Shown here one piece after another: positions 4,084 to 20,220 of a stretch of 32,710 nucleotides of DNA. Origin of the DNA: Peptococcaceae bacterium (GTDB taxonomy: Bacteria > Bacillota > Peptococcia > DRI-13 > PHAD01); contig JANLFJ010000035.1 of the NCBI GenBank assembly GCA_024655825.1, positions 1 through 32,710 of the forward strand. The letters are read 5' to 3'. The notes beneath the pieces were generated by a model, which did not search any database, was not told the origin of the DNA, and saw only the letters and a list, made by a program, of their open reading frames with translations. Every line of letters starts with the position of its first letter. Position 1 is the first letter of the stretch. The position numbers and the translations under genes were made by a program.

Positions 4084-4428
4084 ATGAATGACCGATTGCT
4101 CAAAAGTCTTGGGGAAAAGCTTCAAGAAGCAAGAAAGAAAAGCGGTTTGACCCAGGACCAGGTTGCCAAAATCCTTGAAATAAACAAGGTACAGTTGTCA
4201 TATTACGAAACCGGAGCAAGAGAAATCAACATTACCCTCTTACAGGAATTGGCCAATTTATATGGCTATTCAGTCGGTTATTTTCTCGGTGATGAGAAAA
4301 AAAGCGAGCCCGAAGTAGAAATAGCCTTCAGAGCCGATGAGTTCTGCGAAGAAGATTGGGAAACCGTCGTTTTTGCCAAGACGTTTTTGCGCAATCTTTG
4401 TGAGATGAGGGCACTTCTGGGGAGATGA
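4084..4428 (+). CDS. XRE-family HTH repressor, partner of an ImmA peptidase
   Basis: This is a 114-residue regulator. The N-terminal Cro/C1-type helix-turn-helix runs from about residue 8 to 65 (ARKKSGLTQDQVAKILEI, then LSYYETGAREINITLLQEL, ending YFLGDEK). The C-terminal 45 residues are acidic and may contact the neighbouring peptidase. The ATG follows AAGGAGGGGG. The gene ends 4 nt before the ImmA/IrrE gene, the classic arrangement in which the peptidase cleaves or inactivates the repressor, as in ImmR/ImmA of ICEBs1. The palindromes upstream suggest autoregulation. It could equally act as the antitoxin of a three-gene XRE-ImmA-PIN unit, whose PIN gene is broken here. Confidence 0.88.
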   Translation: MNDRLLKSLGEKLQEARKKSGLTQDQVAKILEINKVQLSYYETGAREINITLLQELANLYGYSVGYFLGDEKKSEPEVEIAFRADEFCEEDWETVVFAKTFLRNLCEMRALLGR

Positions 4429-4432
4429 CGAG

Positions 4433-5203
4433 ATGAATTATGATGAAATAAAATTTAAGGCAGCGGAAACAAGAAAAAATCTTGGGATTGGACAATATGA
4501 CATGGTGGATATATTTAAGGTGCTGAAAGACATTGAAAATATTTCCCTGATAATAACTAAAATTAAGGGGAATATTTCTGGTTTTTTTATGCGTCATAAA
4601 GAAGCTGGACTTATTGTCATAAATGCCAGCAGGAGCCTGGGCCACCAGCATTTCACGGCTGCCCATGAGTTTTATCATATTAAGTACGATATTGGCATGT
4701 CGGGAAAAGTCTGTCCCATCAATAAATTTGAAGAAGAGTACCAAAACGAACGCGACGCCAACCATTTTGCGGCTCATCTCCTGGTTCCAGACAATGCCCT
4801 GGAGTATATGATACTGAAAAGGACTAAAGGACAGCAGATTACCCTAAACGATGTGATATTTTTAGAAAATTACTTCCAGGTAAGCCATAAACTGATGCTT
4901 CTCCGCCTGAAAAGTATCGGAGCGATCACAAGTAAACTATACGACTCCTTGGAAAAAAACATTATTAAAAATGCCGCTCAGCTTGGTTACAACACCGACC
5001 TGTATCGTAATACCGAAAATAAGGGAACACAAATCTATTCGGATTATGCAGAACTTGCCCAGACTCTTTTGGACAGCGGCAGGATAACTTACGGAAAATA
5101 CGAAGAACTGCTTTTGGATGGAGGCTATGCAGATATTTTGTATGGGGATAATGAAGAATCGGAAGGTGCGGAAAATGCATTTGAAGATGCCGATAGTTTT
5201 TGA
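4433..5203 (+). CDS. ImmA/IrrE-family zinc metallopeptidase
   Basis: This is a 256-residue protein with the zinc-peptidase motif HEFYH (His78, Glu79, His82) and a downstream glutamate ligand, probably Glu106, in ERDANHFAAHLLVP. This is the standard COG2856 pattern. Family members cleave or inactivate the cognate XRE repressor to switch on mobile-element or toxin genes. The C-terminal 100 residues form a helical region with an acidic tail. The gene follows the XRE repressor by 4 nt and overlaps the PIN-domain fragment by about 29 nt. The reading frame looks intact. Confidence 0.9.
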   Translation: MNYDEIKFKAAETRKNLGIGQYDMVDIFKVLKDIENISLIITKIKGNISGFFMRHKEAGLIVINASRSLGHQHFTAAHEFYHIKYDIGMSGKVCPINKFEEEYQNERDANHFAAHLLVPDNALEYMILKRTKGQQITLNDVIFLENYFQVSHKLMLLRLKSIGAITSKLYDSLEKNIIKNAAQLGYNTDLYRNTENKGTQIYSDYAELAQTLLDSGRITYGKYEELLLDGGYADILYGDNEESEGAENAFEDADSF

Positions 5204-5331: not shown

Positions 5332-7155
5332 TTATAATTTCTTGCTATCCTGCTGTGCCGCCAGGATTTCCATTTCCTTGGCGGCGGCAAACAGTTTAAG
5401 GTTTTCCTTTAAATCCCTCGTCGCCAATGAATTTGAAAAAGACCTCATCGTCCTTTTTGTCATCCTGAGCGGTAAGCTCGCCGTAGGGAGGAAGGAAATA
5501 GACATAGAAATCCCGCGGGGGCTGGGTGGTGGGTCTTTCGTTGGTCTCTCCCATAAAGAGGTAGCCGAAACGGCAGATATTCTTTTCCTCCCAGTTCAGA
5601 TAGTATTCATAGATTTTATAGCCGGTCCTGTACTCCGGCGCATCCCAGTCCAGCATCTCATAAATCACGGAATAATAGTAGGGATTAAGCTGGGAATCAT
5701 GTAGCGCTCCGGCCTTCTTTTCAATCTGAGCATCATAATCAATGTCTTTCTTGAGATCAAGGTAGTATTGCTCATTATCCTTGTTGTACTCGATGAATTG
5801 CCCGCTGACCGTGTCAATGATGGCTTTCATGACTGAGTTAACCGTGGACAAGAGAAAATCCTCGGTCAGGACAGGCATGTTGATGTAAAGAGACAAAGGT
5901 CGTCTTTTAGATTCTGGGCTGTCAGGCCGGCTTTAACGTCCAGTGTGCCCGTGGTAAGCCGGTGGACGCTGAGGGCATAAATGATCTGAATGGCCAGCGG
6001 CTTGTAAACCGGTTTTGTAAAGGAACGGTTGACAATATCCTCTAAAATGCCGCTCTTGTCCAACACCTCTTTTATTTCCTGTTCCGCTTTTTTGGCCACA
6101 TTTTCTTTAATGTATTTCCAGTAAGAATCATACGATTTAATCCCCGGCTCGTTTGCCGGGACATCATTATCTATAATCGCTTTGACCGTTGCCGAAATTG
6201 TCTTTAAGACCTCGCGCTTTTCCGCCAGGTATACTTTCTGGAAAATCTCTATGAAGGCAGGATGGATGGGGAAAAGCTCCACAAATTCCTCCAGCCGCTC
6301 CGACATGTTTTTATACAAGGGGCAAAACTTCTGCAAATGCTCCCTGATCCAGGTCTTCTGCTCAGGCGTCTTTTTCAGAATTCTCTCGGAGACAACATAG
6401 GCTATATCCTCGCGCCTGATGATGATTTGTTCAAAGCGGTCTTTTACTTTTAACAGCGTGGCTGTCACAAAGGTAAAATTAGGGCTGTCAAAAAGCGCCT
6501 CCTGAACCCCGCAAATCACCCTAAACCGCGAATTCTTGATGAATTCCCCAATTTCCCTAAGAAAACCAAGGTCCAGCATTAAATCCATTTGTGTCCGGCT
6601 CTTTAGATAATCGAGCAGTTCGTCGATTACTAAAAGATACCCCTTCTGACCATAAACCTCCTCGAATCTGGCCATCATTTCATTGAGGGCATCTTTGTTA
6701 CCGGTGATAGTATTGGCTGCCGGGAACTTGTAGACGATCCCTCTTTTGGCCAGGTCCTTTTCCAGTTCCGCTGTAACGATGTCCCGCAAGGGGGTTTTTA
6801 CGGCGCCGATTTCTATTCTCAGCACTTCAAACCTGCCCGCCAGTGGTTTTATGTATTCAGTAAACTTCTGATTGCGCAGAAAGGCTGCCTTGCTCTCATC
6901 CTGGGCTATACAGGAGATGACTGACATCAGGTGTGATTTTCCGGTCCCGTAATTACCGACAATAAATACGCCTTTATTGTCCACGACCTCATCAAGGCTT
7001 AGCTGGGAAAGCACTTTTTCTTTTAGGTTTAAAGCCATGTCATCAGACATGACATAAGTTTCAATTAACTTTTGTGCTTTTTTCGAATCATCTGCATCCT
7101 TCAGTTGAATAATCGTATCGATGGGATCAAAGTGAATCAGGCCACTGTATTTCAT
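5332..7155 (-). pseudogene. DUF6079-type (PglY/BrxC-like) ATPase, frameshifted and 3'-truncated
   Basis: From recall, DUF6079 proteins are large P-loop ATPases of roughly 1200 residues found with phage-resistance genes and resembling PglY and BrxC. The first 429 codons (7155-5866) hold the N-terminal domain, with Walker A GNYGTGKSH near residue 68 and a Walker B-like LLVIDELLDYL. The frame breaks near 5886-5890: DDLCL jumps to YINMPVLTEDF in another frame, which runs on to about 5425. There a second shift moves FFKFI into ATRDLKENLKLF, and translation stops at 5332. Roughly half the family length is therefore missing. The start has a GGGGGAGG site and lies 16 nt after the BrxF-like gene. The product is probably non-functional unless the shifts are sequencing errors; the 3' truncation would remain in any case. 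Confidence 0.72.
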
Positions 7156-7171: not shown

Positions 7172-7630
7172 CTACTTCGTTAAACAATAGACGTCATAAT
7201 TCTTTATGTCATAGAGATGATAATCCGGCAGCTCAGGAACAGAGGAGCTTAACAGGCCATCCCTGAAAGCCCCGTCCCACATGATGATCAACTTTTTGTT
7301 CCTGCCCAATTGAATGAACAATTTAAGCACATCAAGCTGGTAATAAGGCGCAAAGAGCAGATCGATATTATCAATAATAACCCTATCGCTTTCAGAAGCA
7401 GAAACCATTTCCTGGATAATGTCAACGATGTAATTGGGACGCTTTTCTTTCTTGTAGGACAGGACCTTTTGGGATATACAGAGACCCAAATTAAACCAAG
7501 GCCAGTCAGGAAATAATTGCTTTATCACTTCCCTGTTTGTGCAAGCGACGAATACTGGCTTCGGTCCTTTCCCCGTGCCGTATTCTGAAACAGCTTCCCT
7601 CAACAATATTTCTTTCCCCAAACCTATCAC
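7172..7630 (-). CDS. BrxF-like protein lacking a recognisable P-loop
   Basis: The 152 residues resemble BrxF, the small P-loop protein of type 3 BREX. Matches by eye are PWFNLGLCISQKVL, the Walker B-like VIIDNIDLLFAP, then LFIQLGRNKKLIIMWDG, and the end LPDYHLYDIKNYDVYCL. The N-terminus, where Walker A should lie, reads only VIGLGKEILLREAV: three spacer residues short and with Glu in place of Ser/Thr. The GTG at 7630 has only a weak upstream site. In the same frame, a TTG at 7735 has a perfect AGGAGG but meets stop codons. The gene is therefore probably N-terminally damaged. It is the fifth gene of the operon. The assignment rests on remembered family patterns. Confidence 0.55.
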   Translation of the reverse strand: MIGLGKEILLREAVSEYGTGKGPKPVFVACTNREVIKQLFPDWPWFNLGLCISQKVLSYKKEKRPNYIVDIIQEMVSASESDRVIIDNIDLLFAPYYQLDVLKLFIQLGRNKKLIIMWDGAFRDGLLSSSVPELPDYHLYDIKNYDVYCLTK

Positions 7631-7753: not shown

Positions 7754-10700
7754 TTACCCCTCAATCAATAATGCTTTTTTTAAAAATTCAATTACCATGC
7801 CCCTATTCAATTCGTCATGGCAAAACTGATTCCTGAAATGCCTGAGACAACCATAACAGCTTGTATTTCCTTCAGGCGCACCACATTCACATCGCTTTAA
7901 ACGCTCCAATGTTGCGTTCAGAACATCCATTAATATTTTATCATTGACCAGACGTCTTACGTGCCCGGCTCCGCCAGGGACATCATCGAATATCACAAGC
8001 ACAGGTTGATCCAGATTACCGACAGAATAGTATAAGCAACCGTCTAGGTCTTGCCTCTCAATTTGGAGAACTTCGCAAGTACCCTCAAGAATTCCATAAA
8101 GCATCGAGAGCCAAAAGCTTTTCCTGCTGTCAAAATATCCTTCGAAGGACATCATAAGGATGTCCGTTTCAAACTCATGCCCTAGAGCCAAGTGGTTGAT
8201 TAATGGGCCATTACATGCTGCCCCCCACGCGTTTTGGTGAGTGCTGGACGGTTTCTCGTCGCCCAGTACTGTGTATCCGCAACGGAAACATACTTTGAAA
8301 GCCTTTCCGCCGGCGTTATTGATTATCGCCAGCTTGCCCTTGGAAGCAGGGATGGCTATGAGTTTACCCCCATTCAATCCCAAGCTGACACTCTCCCCCT
8401 TATTGTCACAGCCGGAATAATATACCCTGGTAGTATACGTCCTTTCAGGCTTTTCTTCGCCTGGTTTGCCAGGCGCCTGTCTATCGGAGATAAAGCCAAA
8501 GGCAGGAATTATGAAGGTACCTTTATTTCTTATTATTTGACCACAGACAGGGCAAGTTTTTAGCGTTTCATTTTCGTTGCGTTTATCATCAAACTCCACT
8601 CGACTTCCCCGGTGATAGCTGTTGCAATTGTCACAAATGGCATACCTGTAACGCTCCCACTCTTTTTTGGGTAACCGTTTAAGATACCGGCTGGTCCATA
8701 ATTTTCCGCCAGCCACAACCTGGCTGCTTGGGGCATACTCGGATAATGCTATGCGTAAATCCCTTTCCAATCGCAGCTTCTTGACCTCTTCGCCGTGATG
8801 GGTGAGTTGCAGTTCGACCACATCTACGGGGAACCCATACTTTGGAATCACGTTCCTGGTCGATAAGTATTCAATCAGGTCTTTGTCTTTAATAGTGCTT
8901 ATTAGCCTTTTGATATGGTCAACATCGCGTCCTTCATAGAAAAGCTTTATTCGCAATTGCTCCAACTGTTCTATGTCGCCGGCTATTTCTTCCCAGGCTT
9001 TCTGTAAAACAGCCTCTCCTTCCTGGTAAAGGGTTCTTACCCACCCCCAGTTTTCCAGTTGTAGTTCATCGTGCAAATCTTGGGGAACAATCCTCTTTAA
9101 TGCTTCCTTCAAAGCCTGCGGCTTTTTATCAAGAAACTCAGCGAAGTACCGGGGACCGGACACTTCGTTTTGGAAAAAGAAATCATCCGCCTTGCCGAAA
9201 TAATCTGGTTTTTCCCTCCAGAAGTATGACAAGGCCACGGCATAAAGATGCCTTCTTACTATCTTAAGGTTTTCAATTTTAAAATAGGGCGGCTTAATAA
9301 TACCCGCAACCATGCGCCACGGTTCCTGGTAATGGGCCAAATCATGGGAGCGCCTTTGGGCAAAGGTCAAAACATAAGCAACGCTGTCAGTCCTTCGGCC
9401 GGCGCGACCGGCTCTTTGCACATAGTTCGCAGATGAAGGGGGCATATTGCGCATAAAGACCGTTTCTAGTTCGCCTACGTCTACTCCCAACTCAAACGTG
9501 GTTGAACAGCTGAGAATATTGACGCGGCCTTTGACAAAATCGTTTTGCAGTTCAGCCGCAGCCTCACCGCTTAACTGCGCTGTATGTTCTTCAGCTCTCA
9601 TTCGGATGGGAAGCAAATCTATGTACAATTTAAAATAGTGGTTCTCTTTGTTAAACACTAATGGGTTACATTTCCTTAACGTGCCTTCGCAGCGATAAGT
9701 AGGACAAATTCCCCGGATATTATGAAGGGTCAGATTTTTACACTTATCACATAGATACCACTCAACACTGCTGTCCAATTGTGTGGCCTTTAATTCCCAG
9801 ATAGTATTGTTTAGCCTAAATACAGTCCCCAATTGCGGAATACTATTAATGCTAAAATACTGATTCCAAATACTGCTTGGATCGTTAAACCAAAAACTCC
9901 TCCAGATATTGCTTAATAGCTCTAAGCACTTTTCTTTCGTAATATTAGGATTTATTTTTTGAGCCAGGCGTATCAGATAATCCGACCTGCTGTTGTTCGA
10001 ACTGGAGTTCCAGCCTATCACTCCTCTTTTCGTTAAGTCGCGATCAGTTCTATCTTTCACATAATACTCACGGTTCCGAGGCTGAAAGAATTCATCCTGG
10101 GGAGATACTTCCTCAGGAAAAACGAGAGCCCCTTTTTGACGAATGGTATCAAGCAATACCTGATACAAGGTCCAGACTTCCTCTGGGGTAAAGCACCACG
10201 GATCCTTTAAAAGAGGCGGAGGAGGCGCCCATTTTGTGGATTTTACCAGAGAAAAGCCCAAGAGGCCCAAACCTTCCAAACTATTGCGCTTATCTAATGC
10301 CAACAGCTCATACATCAACCACTTCCATATTTCTGTTTTTTGTCCTGTTTTGCTGTAATCGGGAAATATCTCCATTTTCTCCATATACTTTTGCAGCGGG
10401 TTAACAATATCTTGTACCCTCCATTTGTCGTTAAGTACAGCTTCTTTATTTATCTCTAAAATTTTTAAAATTAAGCCCCTTCTAAGGATACGATCATAAG
10501 TGCGGTTTAAATAAGGTGCAAAAAAAGCCGCATCTTGCCTGCTATCGGAAAACGCCAACAACTTTCTTTGGCCGCTATGCATGAAGTCTTTATCAGTATC
10601 ATCAACATTGATTTGATATGATCTCCAGGAATCATCTTCGGCGGGAGGATTTGCTTCCTTAGCCGCTTGCCTCGGCTCGACTTCTCGATATAAAGCGGTG

Positions 10701-12640
10701 GCCAGCACACTGGTTGCCGCATCTGCGCCCGTCAGAAAACGCCATACCACTCCTTGCGGGCTCCTCTTGCCGCAGGCAGGGCAGGCATATACTTTCCCGT
10801 CTTTCACAGGCATTTTGAGCAAACTAAAGTGTTTCCTTTCTTGACAGCAGTTGCCGGCAATGGCATTGTCCTTGTCTATTGAACCGCAACTGCCACAGAG
10901 GGTGTATCTTTCGAACTTCCCGGCTGCTTCTCCAATATTGTCAGGGAAACCGACGATTTCATCCTCATCCTCTTCCACCGGCTCTATTCCCAAATTCAGC
11001 AAAAGATAGTGTTCCAAACGGGTTGACCCTACCCCCTGTTTCAGGCAATGCCTATTATTCTCTCCCTCTGCTGTGATGCCTGATAAATAAACGGCTCCAC
11101 ACTGGCGGCAGCCGGATATTTCAAAGACCGGGTACTCTCTCTCCTTCACCTTGACTGTCTCATGCCTGTCCAAAAACAACTGGAGTCCGGGGGTTAGGCT
11201 GAGGTATGCTCCCTCAATGGCCCTCACAAAGACATGATATCTGGCCGGCAGCAAGGGCTGGCTCTGAGATTCGCTTTTGGCTTTATTTGCCAAGTCAACC
11301 AAAGCTATCAGCGATACCGCCGGATCGGGTACGCCCTGGATTATTTCTTTGGCCAGGTCTAATAAAAGGACAGGACCACCTTTTTGTAAAGCATTTTGCA
11401 AACTTAATAACCTCTGTTCTCCCTTCAGTATTTCGTAAAGGAACGCCGGCCAGCCTTCAGTGCTCCCTCTGCGACAGGCTTCATCAAGCAATTGTCGGGG
11501 GACTTTGCCATCCAAGATTGATACCAATTTATCAATTTTATCCTCCTTATCCACCTTCTGTTCATCCACGATGTTCCTGCATCGGATATACTCCTCAGGG
11601 TCCAACGCTCCCCAGCTGTCTGCGGTTTGCGCCAAAGGAAGGCGAGCAGCACCTATGATGTCCTGTTTATCGGGATTATTGCTTTCGAATTCAAAATCCT
11701 CGCCAAAGAGTTGCCGGGCAAAGGCAGCCACTGCCGGGAAGTCTTTTTCTCCGCCGCCTAAGGTGGCACTGGTGGCAATACATCTTAACCGACCAGGCCG
11801 GCTCATGTTCACCCGGTCTTTTAAGCGTCGCAACAGCATGGCAGTTTCTATTCCTTTGGCTCCCATATACGTGTGGGCTTCATCGAGAACCAAAAAACGC
11901 CAATGCTTGGCATAATCGCCATCAAAAAACACGCTGTCGTCCGGTCTTAAGAGCAGGTACTCCAGCATAGCATAGTTTGTCAACAGGATGTGAGGAGGTG
12001 ATTGCCACATCTGCGTCCTGGATATTAATTCATTATCCAAGGGTTTACTGCCAAACATTTTTACGTGTTTGTCTAAAGCCGCAGCATCCTCCCGTTCAGT
12101 CTCACCCGTATAGCGGCCAAAAGTAATGTCTTTGTAGTTAGCCAAAATTTCGCGCAGGCGCGCCAGTTGGTCATTGGCCAAGGCATTCATGGGATAAAGA
12201 AGAAGCGCTCTCACTCCTGGCCCTAAACGACCCGCTTCTTTCTCTTTGAATAAATGATCAAGTATGGGAAGCAGGAAAGCCTCGGTTTTACCGCTGCCCG
12301 TGCCGGTGGCAAGAACAATATTGCGGTTTTTTTCAATTATTTTGCGCAAAGCCAATTCCTGGTGTAGGTACAGGTTACGGTCAAGCTTAAAAGAAGAAGA
12401 CTGCAACTTTATAAACTCCCTGGATAAGAGTCCCTCCTTGATCAGTTCGTTTATTGTTGCCCCTTTTTGAAAAGAAGGTGTCGCCTCCAGGATGGGGCCC
12501 TTAATAAATTTACCCGGTACTTTAAGAAGATTTACAAACTGTTCATGCAAATTGTGGTCATGTAGAGGAAACGAGGTGGATAAATAGCTGAGATAACTAT
12601 CCTCGACAGCTTTTGTCACTTTAATAGGATCAAAGCTCAT
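7754..12640 (-). CDS. Large DEAH-box helicase with DUF1998-type C-terminus (DruE/DrmB-like)
   Basis: This is a 1628-residue superfamily 2 helicase. Walker A GTGSGKT is at 113-119, followed by LLYPMNALANDQLARL, DEAH at 253-256 and SAT at 291-293. The second RecA domain includes TFELGVDVGELE and the arginine-finger motif YVQRAGRAGR around residues 1040-1070. The long middle and C-terminus carry many paired cysteines (CRQCG, CGSCG, CPACG, CDKC, CDNC, CPVCG, CFRCG), suggesting several zinc ribbons. The end, from DDVPGGAGHVRRL to CYGCLRHFRNQFCHD, is the DUF1998 signature. Helicases of this layout occur in Druantia (DruE) and, as two proteins, in DISARM. The start overlaps the giant upstream gene by 11 nt, which implies coupled translation. 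No frameshift is seen. Confidence 0.85.
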   Translation of the reverse strand: MSFDPIKVTKAVEDSYLSYLSTSFPLHDHNLHEQFVNLLKVPGKFIKGPILEATPSFQKGATINELIKEGLLSREFIKLQSSSFKLDRNLYLHQELALRKIIEKNRNIVLATGTGSGKTEAFLLPILDHLFKEKEAGRLGPGVRALLLYPMNALANDQLARLREILANYKDITFGRYTGETEREDAAALDKHVKMFGSKPLDNELISRTQMWQSPPHILLTNYAMLEYLLLRPDDSVFFDGDYAKHWRFLVLDEAHTYMGAKGIETAMLLRRLKDRVNMSRPGRLRCIATSATLGGGEKDFPAVAAFARQLFGEDFEFESNNPDKQDIIGAARLPLAQTADSWGALDPEEYIRCRNIVDEQKVDKEDKIDKLVSILDGKVPRQLLDEACRRGSTEGWPAFLYEILKGEQRLLSLQNALQKGGPVLLLDLAKEIIQGVPDPAVSLIALVDLANKAKSESQSQPLLPARYHVFVRAIEGAYLSLTPGLQLFLDRHETVKVKEREYPVFEISGCRQCGAVYLSGITAEGENNRHCLKQGVGSTRLEHYLLLNLGIEPVEEDEDEIVGFPDNIGEAAGKFERYTLCGSCGSIDKDNAIAGNCCQERKHFSLLKMPVKDGKVYACPACGKRSPQGVVWRFLTGADAATSVLATALYREVEPRQAAKEANPPAEDDSWRSYQINVDDTDKDFMHSGQRKLLAFSDSRQDAAFFAPYLNRTYDRILRRGLILKILEINKEAVLNDKWRVQDIVNPLQKYMEKMEIFPDYSKTGQKTEIWKWLMYELLALDKRNSLEGLGLLGFSLVKSTKWAPPPPLLKDPWCFTPEEVWTLYQVLLDTIRQKGALVFPEEVSPQDEFFQPRNREYYVKDRTDRDLTKRGVIGWNSSSNNSRSDYLIRLAQKINPNITKEKCLELLSNIWRSFWFNDPSSIWNQYFSINSIPQLGTVFRLNNTIWELKATQLDSSVEWYLCDKCKNLTLHNIRGICPTYRCEGTLRKCNPLVFNKENHYFKLYIDLLPIRMRAEEHTAQLSGEAAAELQNDFVKGRVNILSCSTTFELGVDVGELETVFMRNMPPSSANYVQRAGRAGRRTDSVAYVLTFAQRRSHDLAHYQEPWRMVAGIIKPPYFKIENLKIVRRHLYAVALSYFWREKPDYFGKADDFFFQNEVSGPRYFAEFLDKKPQALKEALKRIVPQDLHDELQLENWGWVRTLYQEGEAVLQKAWEEIAGDIEQLEQLRIKLFYEGRDVDHIKRLISTIKDKDLIEYLSTRNVIPKYGFPVDVVELQLTHHGEEVKKLRLERDLRIALSEYAPSSQVVAGGKLWTSRYLKRLPKKEWERYRYAICDNCNSYHRGSRVEFDDKRNENETLKTCPVCGQIIRNKGTFIIPAFGFISDRQAPGKPGEEKPERTYTTRVYYSGCDNKGESVSLGLNGGKLIAIPASKGKLAIINNAGGKAFKVCFRCGYTVLGDEKPSSTHQNAWGAACNGPLINHLALGHEFETDILMMSFEGYFDSRKSFWLSMLYGILEGTCEVLQIERQDLDGCLYYSVGNLDQPVLVIFDDVPGGAGHVRRLVNDKILMDVLNATLERLKRCECGAPEGNTSCYGCLRHFRNQFCHDELNRGMVIEFLKKALLIEG

Positions 12641-15600
12641 TTTTAAGCACCCCTATAAATTTATTGCATAGTTCCGCTTCTTCTTTCAAAAATATTTGGG
12701 TTAACTCATCAGCTTTTAGGCTCTGGATTGGATTTAAGCCAAACTCTATTGGGAAGGGTTCGGTTTTTGATGAAAACAGAACAAGAAGATCGTCCTTAGC
12801 CATCGGGTATTTATTAAAGATTTTGGCATATATGTCCCTAAAATTAAGACAATATAAGAATTTAGCCTTAATGGTATCAAACTGATGTTCCAGGCCTTTG
12901 CATTTCATAAAGGGGTTATGGGCATACCAGTCCGCATCGTTTTGAAAGATCCTCCCACATGTACTGCATACTACAATCCCGGTAGGTATATCAAAATAAA
13001 CCTGCTGTTCATCTTCTTTCCAGCGCAGCTTAGAATTCTTAAATGGAAAATTCAAATCTAACGAAAAGTCTCGTTTTTCTAATAACCTTGTCAGCACCCG
13101 CCCGGCTAATCCTTCCAAATTGATTGTTTTACTGGAGCCTTTATGACGGTACACCAGCTTTAAACCAATGTCATTTAATCCCTGTATTTGCTTGATAAAC
13201 TCCGTGCATTCTCCGTTTGGGCATTCCAAGGATGCGCCTTCCGTAAGGGCCATAACTCTATAGTAAGAAGGTCCATCCAGGACATCTATTGCCAACCAAT
13301 GGGCTGCCTGACCTAAATTATTGTCTTGCAGGGTTAAGCTGAATTTGCCGCCTGCGCAATAAATCTTCTCTTTAACGACTTTAGGGTTCCCTTCGTGAAT
13401 GCCCAATAGCGAAACCTCTGCCCTGATCAGGGGAGGTGCGTTGATAAATTCACCGGTTATAACAGCTTGGCTGCCAGTGACTAATTGAACTCTGCAGCTT
13501 CTCAGATATATTCCCTCGTAGTTTATATCGATTAAAAAGGTGTCTTTATCCTGGTTTGGAAACTCAACATCTCGTGGGCTCCATGGATCATCAATATCAA
13601 AGTGCAATAAATATTTGCCTTCTGATAAATGTTCTTCGATATGATCTATCACAATACTGCAGCGGCCATTCGGAATTTCCTGCACATATGGTTCCACCCA
13701 AGGTTCCTCCAGGCGCCAAAACCTTATAACCCTCTGCTCCGCCTTTCCTTTTTCTTTCCAAAACAGCTCCAAGGAATACCCATGTTTTTTGTTTTTGATG
13801 AAATATTCAAAACCATATACTTCCCACTTGCTGCGAACCCTCAACACCGGTCCTGCCCTGATTTTCCGCCGATCCTCTAATAGGTTGATGCTGAACACCT
13901 GAACCGGAAAACTGCTCTGCCTTATGGAATCAGTAAACGAAGTCAACTTAAACTGTGCCCTCCCTCCATATAAAGGCAAGGTCAATTCTTGTGCATAATC
14001 ATTCATGTACAGTTGAAGACCCCTTTTCCCCCGGCTGGAACAGAGCACCTCAAGAACCCAACCGTCCGCTTTCTGCCATTCGCCAAACCAGATTTCCTCT
14101 AAGCTGTCTGACCATTCGAAGGATCCCTTCTCTTGGTCACCGGCCAAGCGCCATTTCAGCTTAGGAATATTAACAGTCAGTTGAAAGATTGCTGTTTCTC
14201 CGCCAGATCTAGCAGTTTTAAGGTCACAGCCGAAACTGTCTGCTGAGAAATCTACAACAACATCACAGGTATCAGCTTCTTCACGTATTTTTTGGGCAGG
14301 CTGATGAACAAAAAACTCTGCCGATGGTGGTTTTGCAATACTGAGCTTAACCTCTTTCCTTGTTCCCTTCTCTTGTGGAGGGTAGATTTCCTGCTCAAAA
14401 TCGACCCGGAAACCAGGTAGATAGGCCAGCCGGTAGATTTTAAACTCCTGCCCGAGGTAGTTAAAGACAATGTCATATAACCCGGCATCCAGAGAACCGA
14501 AGAGGGATTGGTCATGTAAATCAAGCCAGGCGTTTCGGCCGTCTTTATCTATCTTTACTGCTTTAATGTCGGCTATCCTGGACCGGACAATCTTATCTCC
14601 TTTTTCATTCTCCATCATAAATATCCAATAAGATAAATCATCCTTTTCATGAAGCGGTATTTTTATTAGCGGTAATTTCTCTGAGTATACCAAAACGCCA
14701 TCCATCGAAACGTTGGAAATTTCTTCTCCGCCCTCTAACTCAGGTATAACAGTGCTCCAATCCTGGATAGGTATCTTGTATGCAATCCCTTTAATGTCAG
14801 TAAAATGTAAGCCTGTTGTATTAGAAAGGTCTAACAGCACCATGCGGAAAGACTTGTCAAGAAAGCCTATTTGCCCTTCTTCTATTATCCTTAGAGAAGG
14901 AGCGATAACAATTCCTTCATTAAGAATAAACCAGTACCGGTTTTTCCTTAATCTCTTGATATCCTGTTTTTTGCCATCTTCACTGAAAACAAGGAAATAA
15001 TCTTTCGAACCCAGACCATTAATGGTCCATGAGCGCAGGAGAGCATCACCTGAGTAAATCTCCACCTGATACTCATCTTTTAGCAAATCCAAATTGATCG
15101 CAGCCGGCAGGGTTTCCACAATACCGTCCTTACTCAAATAAGCTCTAAGGTCTGTTTTGGCCAAAACAGTTGTACCTTCCGTTGCAGTAACCACTAAAGA
15201 CAACGATTGGTAAGAGCTTCCCTTTTGATCATGATAAAGGAAGCGCATTTTTCCTGCCGCCAGCTTAATTCTTTTATACACTGGATCAAGAACAATTGTC
15301 GGAGCCACTGACCTTTCACCCTTGGGTTCTCCTTTCTCCGGCTTCTGTTCATCCCTTTTCGGCCACCATTGTTCAAACCAGCTAATCACTCTCTCAGGGA
15401 GCTGTACTGCCCTGGCCTTGTTGAATTGCCCGTCTGATGCCAATTTCACGAGTTTAACACTCTGGGCAAGAAAGTCCTCAGCCCAGTCCCCCCCGTAGAG
15501 AAGAAACCGTCTTATTGGTTCGTCGACATAAGGATACACCGTCGGGTAAGATGATAATTCTTTTTGTTTAAAATCAAGTGCGTCCTTTAGCTGTGTTAGC

Positions 15601-17360
15601 TGGGTGGATATTTCCCGTTTATGCTGGGCCAAAACGTCATTTCCAGAGCCAGGACTAATCTGAAACAACCTCTCTAATTGCCTTATTTTTCCGATAATCT
15701 TTTTATTGGTCTGTCGTAAGCTTTTAAGTTCTTGGATGGCTGATACGCCTGCCTCCAGGTCGCCATTGCCGAATCCACGGATTATCCGTTCCTTTTCTTG
15801 TAGTTCCCTTTCAATGCTTTGCTTTTTCCTGGTTAGCTCTTTTAGGGCAGGAATAACGGTCTTGTTCAGCTTAACCTTGGCCAGATAAGCATTTTTTCTC
15901 CTGTTTTGGGCTTCAGAAGCCTCGAGTGTTTTGCGTCGAAGCTGTTCCGCTTTATCCGGCTCGTTTTCAAAAGCGGCTGCCAATTCACAAATCCCGGCAT
16001 TTTGTCCCATGATTTTATTATGTGCATGTAATTCCCTTAAACCTTTGTTAAAGCAATCAGTAAGGCTTGCTACTGTTTTGACTAAAGAGCTAAACTCCTC
16101 ATGACTTTGCAAAAACAACTCCTTTTTTAAAGGGCTGTCGTATATCTCCCTCAGTGTCTCCTCTATACCTTTACGCAGTTCCAAAACCCTGTCGCTGTCA
16201 TTTTTTCCTAAAGGGATGCTCCTCCTGGAACCAAACAAACCCATAATAAAGAAGGCCAATCTCTTTATCCACCCGTTGCCTTTAGCTCTTTCTTTTTGTT
16301 CTTTCTCAGTGCTCTCTTTTAGTTGGTAATACGCCTCGATTAGCAAAAGCAATTTATCGGAGCGAAAAACAATTTCAGACTCTAATCTGGGATTTATTTG
16401 AAAAATTTTAACCAATTCCAATGATAACTGTTGTTTGGCTGTATTCAGATTCTCTAACAGTGCCTTTCTGTTTTTCTCTTGTTCTTCAAGCTGCTGTAAT
16501 CTTTCAATTTCTGCGTTTAGGTTGGGTAAAGAATCAAGCAAGGCTTGTTCTCGGGGACCAAACAGATTAATAATAGCTTCCAAGACAGTCCTTTGCTTGT
16601 CCCACTCATCCATTTCTTCCTTGAGTTGCAATAATTCCCTCTGCTTTATAGTCCGGTAACCCTCAAAGTCTTCTGGTAGACCGGACAGATTGCCGTAACT
16701 GCGGAGCTTATTCTCATAATCATTATATTGTTGATGCAATTCGATTAAAGTAGTAAGTTGTCTCTTTTTGTCATCATAATCATGGAACTTTATCATCATT
16801 TCATTTATCTCGTTATGGATTATCATTCTCTTTCTTTGCAATTGTCTAATCTTCGCCAGAAAGGACTTAAGCTCATGGCTTGATGCAATTCCCATTTTTA
16901 GTAATGGCACGACTATTTCCTCAAAGAAATCAGGCAAACAACTCTGAGGAATACCCGCATGTAAGAGGATAGGACCAACAAAACGATGGGCGCCTTCGAT
17001 CTCAGCATGATTTAAGTCATTTGAATTTATATAATCAAGAAAAAAACTCCCCAGTTTGTTCTGTAAAGTCGCATTGCTAATATCTGGGAAGGCTTCGTCA
17101 AGCGACCAGTATTGCCCTTGTTTGTAATTCCAGACGGCTTCATTAACCAATAAAAAAGCCAGACATGACGGGGCAAAGTTCAAAACAAGCTCTAGTCCCT
17201 TGTCTACATCCCGCCTAATCCGGCTATAAATAAAATCTCGCAATTTATTGGCATCCATTTCCGTCAGTTCTAGCTGTCCAATAAAGGAAACACTATTGTT
17301 AACCCTCTGTTTGTTTAAAAAATCTTCGCACTCAGAAATGTTAGTAATGCTCTCCAACAT
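12630..17360 (-). CDS. Giant uncharacterised defence-associated protein (coiled coil plus Cys/His cluster)
   Basis: I do not recognise this 1576-residue protein. Residues about 1-160 are helical. Residues about 165-640 are rich in Glu, Lys, Gln and Leu with heptad-like spacing, which suggests a long coiled coil; a hydrophobic, basic break near 370 reads KRLAFFIMGLFGSRR. Residues about 690-1440 have a beta-rich, repetitive-looking composition with many aromatic and charged alternations. Near 1460-1490 a C-x2-C cluster (CSTCGRIF, then H, C and H residues) may bind zinc. The ATG at 17360 has a GAGGTG site 6 nt upstream; a GTG three codons earlier is less likely. The gene follows the WYL gene by 36 nt and overlaps the helicase. 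It might play the part of DruH in type III Druantia, but that is only inference from position. Confidence 0.8.
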   Translation of the reverse strand: MLESITNISECEDFLNKQRVNNSVSFIGQLELTEMDANKLRDFIYSRIRRDVDKGLELVLNFAPSCLAFLLVNEAVWNYKQGQYWSLDEAFPDISNATLQNKLGSFFLDYINSNDLNHAEIEGAHRFVGPILLHAGIPQSCLPDFFEEIVVPLLKMGIASSHELKSFLAKIRQLQRKRMIIHNEINEMMIKFHDYDDKKRQLTTLIELHQQYNDYENKLRSYGNLSGLPEDFEGYRTIKQRELLQLKEEMDEWDKQRTVLEAIINLFGPREQALLDSLPNLNAEIERLQQLEEQEKNRKALLENLNTAKQQLSLELVKIFQINPRLESEIVFRSDKLLLLIEAYYQLKESTEKEQKERAKGNGWIKRLAFFIMGLFGSRRSIPLGKNDSDRVLELRKGIEETLREIYDSPLKKELFLQSHEEFSSLVKTVASLTDCFNKGLRELHAHNKIMGQNAGICELAAAFENEPDKAEQLRRKTLEASEAQNRRKNAYLAKVKLNKTVIPALKELTRKKQSIERELQEKERIIRGFGNGDLEAGVSAIQELKSLRQTNKKIIGKIRQLERLFQISPGSGNDVLAQHKREISTQLTQLKDALDFKQKELSSYPTVYPYVDEPIRRFLLYGGDWAEDFLAQSVKLVKLASDGQFNKARAVQLPERVISWFEQWWPKRDEQKPEKGEPKGERSVAPTIVLDPVYKRIKLAAGKMRFLYHDQKGSSYQSLSLVVTATEGTTVLAKTDLRAYLSKDGIVETLPAAINLDLLKDEYQVEIYSGDALLRSWTINGLGSKDYFLVFSEDGKKQDIKRLRKNRYWFILNEGIVIAPSLRIIEEGQIGFLDKSFRMVLLDLSNTTGLHFTDIKGIAYKIPIQDWSTVIPELEGGEEISNVSMDGVLVYSEKLPLIKIPLHEKDDLSYWIFMMENEKGDKIVRSRIADIKAVKIDKDGRNAWLDLHDQSLFGSLDAGLYDIVFNYLGQEFKIYRLAYLPGFRVDFEQEIYPPQEKGTRKEVKLSIAKPPSAEFFVHQPAQKIREEADTCDVVVDFSADSFGCDLKTARSGGETAIFQLTVNIPKLKWRLAGDQEKGSFEWSDSLEEIWFGEWQKADGWVLEVLCSSRGKRGLQLYMNDYAQELTLPLYGGRAQFKLTSFTDSIRQSSFPVQVFSINLLEDRRKIRAGPVLRVRSKWEVYGFEYFIKNKKHGYSLELFWKEKGKAEQRVIRFWRLEEPWVEPYVQEIPNGRCSIVIDHIEEHLSEGKYLLHFDIDDPWSPRDVEFPNQDKDTFLIDINYEGIYLRSCRVQLVTGSQAVITGEFINAPPLIRAEVSLLGIHEGNPKVVKEKIYCAGGKFSLTLQDNNLGQAAHWLAIDVLDGPSYYRVMALTEGASLECPNGECTEFIKQIQGLNDIGLKLVYRHKGSSKTINLEGLAGRVLTRLLEKRDFSLDLNFPFKNSKLRWKEDEQQVYFDIPTGIVVCSTCGRIFQNDADWYAHNPFMKCKGLEHQFDTIKAKFLYCLNFRDIYAKIFNKYPMAKDDLLVLFSSKTEPFPIEFGLNPIQSLKADELTQIFLKEEAELCNKFIGVLKNEL

Positions 17361-17396
17361 ACACAACACCTCTTTTTGCTAAAAAAAGAAGCCAAG

Positions 17397-18641
17397 TTAT
17401 AAAACTGAGTTGTCTGCATACATCGCTTCTATTTGCGATGCGATCTTCCGCATTTTCTCCTGCAGCGCCGGGGGTTCAAGCAGTTTAGCCCCTGTCTTCC
17501 ACTGCAAAAGCCAACTGATGAATTCAATAATTCCTTTTATTTTAAAGCTGACTACGATTGAACCGTCTTCCCTTTCCTCTTCTATCATTTGGCTGGGATG
17601 ATATTTGATTTTTTTCACCCTGTAGGCAACAGAAGGGGCGAATTGCACTTTGATATGAGTTGCTTCCTTTTCCTCAAATACTCCCCACCTGTCTTTGACA
17701 TATTCTCCAAGTTGGAAATCGGCCGGATAAAGGAATTTCTGATGCTGTCTTGGCGAGATGTATTCAATCTGATCAATGCGAAACGTCCGCAGGTCATTCT
17801 TCTCCAAGCACTTCCCTATCAAATACCAATTATGATGCTTGCATACCAACCCGTACGGTTCGACTAACCTTTTTGATATCTCCTGGTTGTAAGATAGAAA
17901 GTATTCTATATAGATGACATACGACTGATTAAGAGCATGCAATATCTCTAAGAAAGTTTTACTTACTCTTTCTGTATCGATAAGAGCTTCATCCACAATG
18001 TAGACTCTTGATTCCAACTCCTTTAAAGCAATCGCCTGGAGAGAATACCTGTTTCTGGTAAGGGTGCCTATCAAGGCTTCCTTTATTTCTTGAGTCCCCA
18101 AAGTAAGGGCCGTTTCTTTTTGCTGCAACAGGCTCAGGTAAATAAACATAGCCTTCTCGGGGCTTATCGCAGGAAGATAGGTGTTATCTAATTTGTACCT
18201 GCCCTTTTCCCCCATATTTCTATCCGGTCGAACTATTCTAATGTTGAGTTCCTGCTCCAGATCACACAGGTCTCTGTATACCGTCCGTTCGGTAACATCC
18301 AGCTTTTCCGCCAATTCCCCCAGGGTGGCTCCTCCAAAAGGGGTCCTCTGGTTTAAAACGTTGATGAGTTTAGCCAGCCGGGTAGATTTATTCATAACTT
18401 TGCTGACACTCATCTTGTTTTTCCTGTTGTATTCTTTAATGGCTTCGATATTAAGAGCCTGGCCGTTGTGTTTAACCATGCCAACATCTATTGCAGCGGC
18501 TGCCGATTCAAGATAGGTAAAAAGGGTCTTTTCGTTTATGCCCAACAAACTGCAAAGTTGTTCGGTTTCTACCTCGTTGCCTTCTTTAACAGAATCAACA
18601 ATCCCCTGGTAAATACGCATCTCCCGTTTCAGTCTGCTCAA
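17397..18641 (-). CDS. WYL-domain transcriptional regulator
   Basis: This is a roughly 414-residue regulator. After an N-terminal helical segment that could be a second HTH, a DeoR-type winged helix is clear (GATLGELAEKLDVTERTVYR). It is followed by a WYL domain (VEPYGLVCKHHNWYLIGKC and LRTFRIDQIEYI) and a WCX-like C-terminus ending near SQIEAMYA. WYL regulators such as BrxR and CapW repress phage-defence operons and are thought to respond to nucleic-acid or nucleotide ligands. I placed the start at the TTG at 18641, preceded by AGGTGAG; a TTG at 18692 and an ATG at 18620 are alternatives. It is the second gene of the operon, and the TGACA-N6-TGTCA pair before the first gene is its probable target. 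Confidence 0.88.
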   Translation of the reverse strand: MSRLKREMRIYQGIVDSVKEGNEVETEQLCSLLGINEKTLFTYLESAAAAIDVGMVKHNGQALNIEAIKEYNRKNKMSVSKVMNKSTRLAKLINVLNQRTPFGGATLGELAEKLDVTERTVYRDLCDLEQELNIRIVRPDRNMGEKGRYKLDNTYLPAISPEKAMFIYLSLLQQKETALTLGTQEIKEALIGTLTRNRYSLQAIALKELESRVYIVDEALIDTERVSKTFLEILHALNQSYVIYIEYFLSYNQEISKRLVEPYGLVCKHHNWYLIGKCLEKNDLRTFRIDQIEYISPRQHQKFLYPADFQLGEYVKDRWGVFEEKEATHIKVQFAPSVAYRVKKIKYHPSQMIEEEREDGSIVVSFKIKGIIEFISWLLQWKTGAKLLEPPALQEKMRKIASQIEAMYADNSVL

Positions 18642-18801
18642 GTTCTCACCTGCCCCGGAAATGCATTTTTCGTCCTCCTGATGGTGCCGCAAGCGGCATG
18701 GCCGTCATCTCAACATGAAAACTGGAAGACTCCGCTGCCTTTCTTAAGCGGTTCCTTTCAAATCGGTTATATACACGTTGCATAATTAACCGCCTCAACA
18801 C

Positions 18802-20055
18802 TCAACGCTTATTCCTGGACCTGTAGCTGGAAAACTTCATTTCTTTTCTTAATAGAGGGCTAAATTCTCTGCTCTCGCTTACCTTATAATAGTTCGATTC
18901 AAGACTTCTAATTTCCTCCAATATTTCGTTGTCTTGACATTTCAAAAACAAATCGTCTAATTTTTCTTTTTGTGCTTTAAGCATCTGACATGCAGCATCA
19001 AAAAGTCCCTCATCAGCCTTTTTGATGGCTTCTTCCCTGATTTGAGCGGTTCGATATATCTCAATCTCTTTTATTACCTTAAAGTCCACCACCGCATCCT
19101 GTAAATCCCCGTATTTTTCGGTCACAGGCACATTAATGGCCAAATCGAGCTTAACTGATACCAGGTTGTCCTGAACGTCGTCATACCTTAAACTAATCTG
19201 CCCCAGGTCCAATCCTCCGCTATCTCCAGTTTGCACCGTAAGTTCAATAAGGACAGTTTTAATGTCGCCGCTATACATATCGGGGAGTTTAATCCGGATA
19301 TCATGACCAAACTCCGGTTTATAACCAATAATCCCTATGGCTTTCACGCTTTCTGAAGGGGTAATGGTCAGTTCAAGGTTCTGGGCTGCAACGCTTAACA
19401 ATCCTTGCAGTTCCTGGCGGAAGATTTCCGGCAACATGTCAGGACTGGAAATATAATAGAAGTTGCCTCCTCCAGCCTCAGCCATGTCTACCAGTAAGTC
19501 TTCCTGAAAATCCTGGCCAACCCCCAGTGTTGATATGGTTATGCCCTTACCGTTTAACCTTTTGACATGGGAAACCAATTTTTGGGGTTCGGTAATACCG
19601 CGATTGGCTAAACCATCCGTTAATAGCACTACCCGGTTTACCTGATCCCCTAACAAATTTTCTCTCACCAGCCCAGCGCCCTTGAAAAGGCCGCCGCTTA
19701 GATTAGTACAGCCGCCAGATCCAATACTTTGAATTGCTTGTATCATCTGGTCTTTGTTGATGGCCTTTTGAGCCGGTATCAATACATTTACCTCATCGTC
19801 AAATGCAACTACAGACACAGTATCGTGCGTATCCAGATGCTCCAAGGCAAATTTAACAGCCCGCTTGGTGTAGTCAAGCTTCTCTCCTGCCATTGAACCG
19901 GACCTGTCCAGAACAAAGCTTACATTGACCGGCAACCTCCCCTTAATCTGAACTGGCGGTTGCCTCAGTTGTAACATTACGTAAATCTGCTGCAGCGAAT
20001 TAACCCCAAGACACCGATGGCTAAGAGAAAGGTTTAAATCCAACTTTTCAGTCAT
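18802..20055 (-). CDS. VWA-domain protein, first gene of the defence-like operon
   Basis: This is a 417-residue cytoplasmic protein with a von Willebrand factor A domain. The metal-ion-dependent adhesion site is complete: DRSGSM at 50-55, a threonine in GGCTNLSGG, and an aspartate in LLTDGLANRG. After the VWA fold come a beta-rich region and a charged helical C-terminus with many Lys and Glu residues. There is no signal peptide or membrane helix, so an intracellular scaffolding role for partner proteins is more likely than adhesion. The ATG at 20055 follows GGGGGTGG at good spacing. An upstream in-frame extension crosses the promoter elements and is unlikely. The gene leads the operon and lies about 160 nt before the WYL regulator start. 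Confidence 0.85.
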   Translation of the reverse strand: MTEKLDLNLSLSHRCLGVNSLQQIYVMLQLRQPPVQIKGRLPVNVSFVLDRSGSMAGEKLDYTKRAVKFALEHLDTHDTVSVVAFDDEVNVLIPAQKAINKDQMIQAIQSIGSGGCTNLSGGLFKGAGLVRENLLGDQVNRVVLLTDGLANRGITEPQKLVSHVKRLNGKGITISTLGVGQDFQEDLLVDMAEAGGGNFYYISSPDMLPEIFRQELQGLLSVAAQNLELTITPSESVKAIGIIGYKPEFGHDIRIKLPDMYSGDIKTVLIELTVQTGDSGGLDLGQISLRYDDVQDNLVSVKLDLAINVPVTEKYGDLQDAVVDFKVIKEIEIYRTAQIREEAIKKADEGLFDAACQMLKAQKEKLDDLFLKCQDNEILEEIRSLESNYYKVSESREFSPLLRKEMKFSSYRSRNKR

Positions 20056-20102
20056 AAAAAACCACCCCCATATGTGCTTTAGTTCTAGTATGCCGGAGGT
20101 GG

Positions 20103-20120
20103 CTGACAATAGACTGTCAG
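20103..20120. promoter_or_regulatory. Palindromic operator 1, TGACA-N6-TGTCA
   Basis: CTGACA and TGTCAG face each other across ATAGAC. The site lies over the expected transcription start of the minus-strand operon, just downstream of its -10. Together with the second copy it is the likely binding site of the WYL regulator encoded by the second gene. Confidence 0.65.
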
Positions 20121-20124
20121 TATG

Positions 20125-20152
20125 ATTATCGCAAATGACAACACTTTGTCAG
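20125..20152 (-). promoter_or_regulatory. Candidate promoter of the defence-like operon
   Basis: Read on the minus strand, CTGACA (20152-20147) is followed after 16 nt by GATAAT (20130-20125). The first element lies within operator 2 and the start site within operator 1, so a bound repressor would block the promoter on both sides. The match to the vegetative consensus is fair, not perfect. Confidence 0.5.
20136..20151. promoter_or_regulatory. Palindromic operator 2, TGACA-N6-TGTCA
   Basis: TGACA and TGTCA face each other across ACACTT. The half-sites and 6-nt gap are identical to those of operator 1, and the centres are 32 nt apart, about three turns of the helix, so two dimers could bind the same face. 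The site overlaps the candidate -35. Confidence 0.65.
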
Positions 20153-20163
20153 CAACTATAAAC

Positions 20164-20220
20164 AAAAAAGGGATAAGTGGCGTAAGTCCTGTATTTACAA
20201 GACTTTGCCCTTATCCCTTT
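20164..20220 (-). terminator. Intrinsic terminator downstream of glmS
   Basis: Read on the minus strand, an 11-bp stem (AAAGGGATAAG with CTTATCCCTTT), extended by a second imperfect stem inside, is followed by TTTTTT. It lies about 125 nt beyond the glmS stop and also marks the right edge of the accessory region. Read on the plus strand it has no T run. Confidence 0.75.

What the first reader, a model, noticed from the sequence alone, without database searches (positions are those of the whole stretch)
20103..20152. Twin TGACA-N6-TGTCA palindromes flanking the defence promoter
Two copies with identical half-sites and gap length lie with centres exactly 32 nt apart. One overlaps the candidate -35, the other the expected start site. 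Repression by the WYL protein of gene 2 is the simple explanation, similar in logic to BrxR and CapW control of their operons. Silencing with release on infection would explain how such a large operon is tolerated.
Basis: partly seen in the sequence, partly recalled or inferred. Interest (0 to 1): 0.7.

Follow-up and report, generated by a model that had tools for sequence, protein, structure and literature searches.

The report
WYL-box activator promoter before defence operon
The two matching DNA palindromes in front of this defence operon are real and belong to a control element shared by many bacteria of this phylum, which most likely works as an on-switch for DNA-repair and anti-virus genes, probably in response to DNA damage, rather than as the off-switch that was proposed.

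Summary
TGACA-N6-TGTCA occurs exactly twice in the window, and these are its only exact copies in the 3.16-Mb genome. Expectation in the window is 0.02. The centres are 32 bp apart, upstream of a VWA-WYL operon.

The regulator is probably the operon's WYL protein. The palindrome (a "WYL box") precedes VWA-WYL operons of distant relatives even where the downstream genes differ. It recurs in genomes carrying related WYL genes before AddAB, RecQ, YhaM-like and HIRAN genes, Shango, CRISPR Cas6-Cas8b, Cas3, Cas2-Cas1, type I R-M and other WYL genes.

The proposed repression is not the best reading. In sites chosen without regard to a -10, a -10 element sits exactly 11 bp after TGTCA (19 of 31 de-duplicated, p = 3e-12). 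There is no -35, and G-14 is enriched. This is the geometry of the PafBC (tTGTCRgtg-N8-TAnnnT) and DriD promoters, both activated by ssDNA-bound WYL proteins. The WYL sequence matches DriD and PafBC (E about 2e-15), not BrxR or CapW (E 0.3-0.5).

Best model: the WYL homodimer activates an autoregulated, damage-inducible promoter with tandem sites. Binding, sign and signal are inferred, not shown.

The parts
20104..20119 (-). proximal WYL box, TGACAGTCTATTGTCA read towards the operon
   Evidence: conserved before VWA in L007, L008, L043, L044
20136..20151 (-). distal WYL box, TGACAAAGTGTTGTCA, 32 bp upstream (three helical turns); conserved in L007 with an N7 gap
   Evidence: no such second box at the other sites tested
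20087..20092 (-). inferred -10 of the proximal unit, CATACT, 11 bp after TGTCA (TATTCT in L007, TAATCT in L008, TATAAT in L043, TACAAT in L044)
20119..20124 (-). possible -10 of the distal unit, CATACT, also 11 bp after its TGTCA and overlapping the proximal box by one base; same in L007
20125..20130 (-).
18802..20055 (-). VWA-domain protein, first gene of the operon (ATG at 20055)
   Evidence: Pfam VWA 1.4e-21; 57% identical orthologue in L007
17397..18692 (-). WYL regulator: N-terminal helical domain, HTH_11, WYL, WCX
   Evidence: Pfam WYL 7.6e-18, WCX 3.9e-15, HTH_11 1.2e-7; profile search hits DriD and PafBC at about 2e-15
12630..17369 (-). 1579-aa protein of unknown family, partner of the helicase
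   Evidence: no significant Pfam, PADLOC or NCBIfam hit; homologues beside the helicase in several other loci
7754..12640 (-). DEAD helicase with MrfA Zn-binding domain, DruE-like
   Evidence: Pfam DEAD, MZB; PADLOC DruE1 2e-191
7172..7630 (-). BrxF
   Evidence: NCBIfam NF033453 72 bits, cutoff 50; PADLOC
5866..7155 (-). BrxC (DUF6079), N-terminal third; continues out of frame at 5396-5896 and then stops (truncated)

Best explanation
The twin palindromes are WYL boxes: tandem binding sites for a homodimer of the operon's own WYL protein. The proximal box is centred about 31 bp before the start site, over the place of the missing -35 element, with its -10 (CATACT, 20092-20087) 11 bp downstream. 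When activated through its WYL domain, most likely by single-stranded DNA arising from phage attack or DNA damage, the dimer recruits sigma-A RNA polymerase to a promoter that polymerase alone cannot use, as DriD and PafBC do. The distal box, 32 bp upstream on the same helical face and centred near -63, could hold a second dimer in a class-I position or drive a second overlapping promoter. The operon, WYL gene included, would thus be self-amplifying and induced. Shown by sequence: the boxes, their conservation, the fixed -10 spacing, the absent -35, the gene content. Inferred: binding, sign, ligand, dimer state.
For: The boxes are unique in the genome. Twin boxes are kept in L007, an orthologous VWA-WYL operon (57% identity) followed by other genes (YhaM-like, SbcD-like); single boxes occur in L008, L043 and L044, the last two with one base off in the right half. 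At palindromes in 19 genomes, chosen without using the -10, NAnnnT sits at offset 11 in 32 of 46 oriented intergenic sites (19 of 31 after removing similar ones, p = 3e-12), against 2 of 28 for in-gene sites. In 35 promoter-type sites G-14 is enriched (23 of 35) and no -35 exists (best match to TTGACA 2.1 of 6, shuffled 2.55; 1 of 35 reaches 4). The composite occurs 110 times in 398 Bacillota genomes against 21 for the reversed pattern, and more often in genomes with this WYL family (12 of 25 against 52 of 373, p = 1e-4). The profile's best PDB hits are DriD and PafBC at about 2e-15; BrxR 0.31, CapW 0.53. PafBC promoters are tTGTCRgtg-N8-TannnT, the same 11-bp spacing (PMC5656591). DriD binds ATACGAC-N7-GTCGTAT over the -35 at a fixed distance from the -10, with weak -35s and G-14 conserved (PMC12340889). 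SiwR, another WYL activator, needs the -26 region (PMC10693628). Genes behind the boxes are mostly repair and defence.
Against: No expression or binding data exist. The window's own -10 (CATACT) is a weak match, lacking the first T of TAnnnT. BrxR of Acinetobacter represses from a palindrome that overlaps a -35 (PMC9122589), so position alone does not fix the sign. Some box-bearing WYL genes look like YafY/YobV-type regulators and may be simple autorepressors. L040 has only a weak box. The spacing statistic draws on partly related promoters, even after de-duplication. A few downstream genes (GGDEF-HD sensor, DUF932) are not obviously repair or defence.
Confidence: 0.68

Rival explanations
1. 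The WYL dimer is a repressor: it occupies both boxes over the -35 and start site of CTGACA-N16-GATAAT and is released by a ligand on infection, like BrxR or CapW.
For: Two boxes on one helical face flank a readable promoter. BrxR and CapW repress defence operons from palindromes over or near the -35 or -10.
Against: GATAAT is not kept in L007 and the spacing there changes; the fixed 11-bp -10 is kept instead. Across many promoters the box replaces the -35. WYL sequence affinity is to activators.
Confidence: 0.2
2. Mixed control: the protein activates from one box and the other box damps it, for example the proximal box blocking the distal promoter whose -10 it overlaps.
For: Both boxes have CATACT 11 bp downstream and the distal -10 overlaps the proximal box by one base; same arrangement in L007.
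Against: Single-box orthologues exist (L008, L043, L044), and no other site tested has a second box.
Confidence: 0.08
3. The boxes bind another regulator, not a WYL protein.
For: Some composite sites have no WYL gene in the few kilobases read around them (L179, L180, L183, L184).
Against: WYL genes stand directly behind, or in the operon behind, boxes in the window, L007, L008, L041, L042, L119, L123, L136, L188 and L190, and beside boxes in L181 and L186 (L119, L123 and L136 named as WYL-type by eye from their N-terminal sequence); box presence goes with this WYL family; DriD and PafBC half-sites share GTC.
Confidence: 0.03
4. Chance palindromes without function.
For: None found.
Against: Expected 0.02 in the window, none of 100 shuffles gave two; conserved in orthologues.
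Confidence: 0.01

Closest known systems
DriD (Caulobacter crescentus WYL activator, ssDNA-responsive)
   Same: Palindromic site over the -35 at a fixed distance from the -10, weak -35, G-14 conserved, GAC/GTC half-sites, HTH-WYL-WCX protein; among the best PDB matches of the WYL profile.
   Different: DriD site is ATACGAC-N7-GTCGTAT, here TGAC-AN6T-GTCA; here tandem sites, an extra N-terminal domain, a Bacillota host and an operon with defence genes; ssDNA response untested.
PafBC and the RecA-NDp promoter (mycobacteria)
   Same: TGTCA followed 11 bp later by TAnnnT, the -26 element; WYL-WCX sequence match.
   Different: PafBC is a heterodimer on a non-palindromic motif; here the site is a palindrome and the regulator a single gene.
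SiwR (mycobacterial WYL activator)
   Same: Homodimer on a 19-bp palindrome between -35 and -10; depends on -26.
   Different: Controls DinB-like genes; different sequence.
BrxR and CapW (WYL repressors of BREX and CBASS)
   Same: WYL regulator beside a defence operon with palindromic operators.
   Different: Repressors, with operators over the -10 (CapW) or of other half-site length and spacing; poor sequence match to this WYL protein (E 0.31 and 0.53).

Membership tests
DriD-type WYL activator promoter | palindromic site centred on the -35 at a constant distance from the -10 | tested here: met
   offset 11 in 32 of 46 sites, 19 of 31 de-duplicated, p = 3e-12
DriD-type WYL activator promoter | poor -35 element | tested here: met
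   best match 2.1 of 6 on average, below shuffled
DriD-type WYL activator promoter | sequence ATACGAC-N7-GTCGTAT | tested here: not met
   sites are TGACA-N6-TGTCA; only the GAC/GTC core is shared
DriD-type WYL activator promoter | ssDNA-dependent activation by a homodimer | not testable with these tools
   needs protein and transcription assays
PafBC / RecA-NDp promoter | tTGTCR at -26, TAnnnT 11 bp downstream | tested here: met
   in the window itself the first T of the -10 is C
PafBC / RecA-NDp promoter | non-palindromic site and PafB-PafC heterodimer | tested here: not met
   site is a palindrome; one WYL gene in the operon
BrxR/CapW-type repressor | sequence relationship of the regulator | tested here: not met
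   E 0.31 and 0.53 against 2e-15 for DriD and PafBC
BrxR/CapW-type repressor | represses the operon in the absence of infection | not testable with these tools
   needs reporter assay
BREX type 3 | brxA, brxF, brxC, pglXI, brxHII, pglZ | tested here: not met
   only BrxF and a truncated, frameshifted BrxC were found
Druantia | DruE with its Dru partner proteins | tested here: inconclusive
   helicase matches DruE models; the partner has no PADLOC hit

The most novel reading that the evidence does not exclude
A widespread SOS-like regulon in Bacillota: one WYL-box promoter class (TGACA-N6-TGTCA-N11-TAnnnT, no -35), read by ssDNA-sensing WYL activators, jointly switches on recombination and repair nucleases (AddAB, RecQ, SbcD-like) and immune systems (CRISPR-Cas, Shango, type I R-M, BREX/Druantia-like operons).
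Probability: 0.5. Interest if true: 0.82.

Novelty: new variant of a known kind. Interest (0 to 1): 0.64.

Why it matters
WYL regulators next to defence systems are mostly discussed as repressors or as unknowns. A readable promoter signature gives a genome-wide way to predict which immune and repair operons a WYL activator controls, and ties CRISPR-Cas and other defences to a DNA-damage-type signal in Bacillota. No paper describing this regulon was found in the open-access library searched; most subscription journals are not covered.

Tried and rejected
Repression through GATAAT: demoted because that -10 is not conserved. Box as property of the 1579-aa/helicase pair: rejected, since the related pairs in L172, L173, L174, L176 and L177 have no box, even in G289, which has the regulator and a box elsewhere. 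Twin boxes as a general rule: rejected, a second box appears only in the window and L007 among the 51 sites scanned. AlphaFold model of the WYL protein from two sequences: mean pLDDT 52, not used for fold comparison. WYL scan of genome contigs gave only three loci. A script failed on a file name and one family search on wrong coordinates. The PafBC sigma-adaptation paper PMC8635444 is not held.

Full report
Check of the observation. TGACA-N6-TGTCA lies at 20104-20119 and 20136-20151. In the window 0.02 exact copies are expected and no shuffle gave two. The genome of 3.16 Mb has no other exact copy, and the composite box plus -10 with up to one mismatch gives these two and one further match, the reversed control one.

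The operon. Leftward from the boxes stand VWA (18802-20055), WYL (17397-18692), a 1579-aa protein of unknown family, a DruE-like helicase, BrxF, and a BrxC that is frameshifted and truncated. Upstream of the boxes, an inverted repeat (about 20168-20220, seen in the sequence) and glmS follow.

Orthologues. VWA-WYL relatives at 57-58% identity occur in G001 (L007) and G025 (L008, Clostridiaceae bacterium BRH_c20a), together with other genes: a YhaM-like OB-HD protein and a SbcD-like phosphoesterase. L007 keeps the twin boxes (distal N7, proximal N6) in almost the same text, L008 has one box. More distant VWA-WYL pairs (42%) have TGACA-N6-TGTCT-N11-TATAAT (L043) and TGACA-N6-TGTCC-N11-TACAAT (L044); L040 has a weak form. 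By contrast, five relatives of the 1579-aa/helicase pair without VWA-WYL have no box. The boxes thus travel with VWA-WYL.

The regulon. A profile of the WYL family found it in 25 of 398 Bacillota genomes sampled. Exact palindromes in 19 such or related genomes were located without regard to a -10 and most were fetched and read. Oriented to the downstream gene, NAnnnT stands at offset 11 in 32 of 46; other offsets give 0-10 except offset 13, which gives 20, part of which is the GATAATCT register; in-gene sites give 2 of 28. After merging similar sequences it is 19 of 31, p = 3e-12. In 35 promoter-type sites, G-14 is enriched and there is no -35. The composite is found 110 times in 64 of 398 genomes, the reversed pattern 21 times (counted from the table). 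Genomes with the WYL family have it in 12 of 25 cases, others in 52 of 373 (p = 1e-4).

Genes behind the boxes: AddB-like genes (L081, L082, L100, L101; named from weak helicase or ADDB_N hits and by eye) and an AddB homologue after a DUF1232 gene (L052); RecQ (L078); YhaM-like OB-HD proteins; HIRAN with ARPP-1 (L077; similar genes in L079 and L080 by eye); ARPP-1 before YhaM-like and WYL (L041, L042); SngA-SngB and a DEAD helicase, the Shango system (L081); Cas6 before Cas8b-like genes (L097, L099, L102), Cas6 (L084), Cas8b (L108); Cas3 (L189, L191); Cas2-Cas1 (L186); WYL with Cas6 (L188); HNH and HsdM (L048); WYL-type regulators (L119, L123, L136, L190). Exceptions are a GGDEF-HD sensor and DUF932.

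Mechanism. PafBC promoters have tTGTCRgtg-8 nt-TannnT (PMC5656591), which is the same 11 bp between TGTCR and the -10; PafBC is turned on by ssDNA in its WYL domains (PMC11804915). DriD binds ATACGAC-N7-GTCGTAT over the -35 at a constant distance from the -10, on promoters with poor -35s and conserved G-14, and needs ssDNA (PMC12340889). With the -10 11 bp after TGTCA, the box here centres at about -31.5 and its spacer takes the place of the -35, as in DriD. The WYL profile ranks DriD and PafBC first (about 2e-15) with BrxR at 0.31 and CapW at 0.53. I therefore favour ssDNA-triggered activation by the operon's WYL homodimer. The distal box, three helical turns upstream, may hold a second dimer near -63 or serve a second promoter; this is inference.

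Limits. Nothing here measures binding, sign or signal. A WYL repressor over a -35 exists (BrxR of Acinetobacter, PMC9122589), so repression keeps a probability of 0.2. The structure model was too poor to use.

Noticed in passing
window 5396-7155: BrxC is frameshifted near 5880 and ends about 590 residues into a 1238-residue family, so the BREX-3-like tail of the operon looks decayed.
   Followed up: partly
window 7754-17369; L172, L173, L174, L176, L177: The 1579-aa protein and the DruE-like helicase form a two-gene module found in other Bacillota without VWA-WYL; the first protein has no significant match in Pfam, PADLOC or NCBIfam.
   Followed up: partly
window 4084-5203: HTH_3 and ImmA/IrrE-like peptidase pair on the + strand beside the truncated end of the operon.
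   Followed up: no
L081 and L007 (G001 687500-724000): Shango, AddAB and VWA-YhaM-WYL-SbcD-like genes lie within about 30 kb, with boxes at 689872, 703682 and 710110: three of the six exact palindromes of that 3.8-Mb genome.
   Followed up: partly
window 17397-18692: The WYL protein carries an extra N-terminal domain (about residues 19-95), predicted helical with a short wing, that seems shared with the G276 and G204 relatives.
   Followed up: no
L184 4404, L183 9422 and other sites of G137: G137 has eight composite sites with a common TGTCAAAAG sequence after the box in several of them, suggesting a separate WYL subfamily regulon.
   Followed up: no
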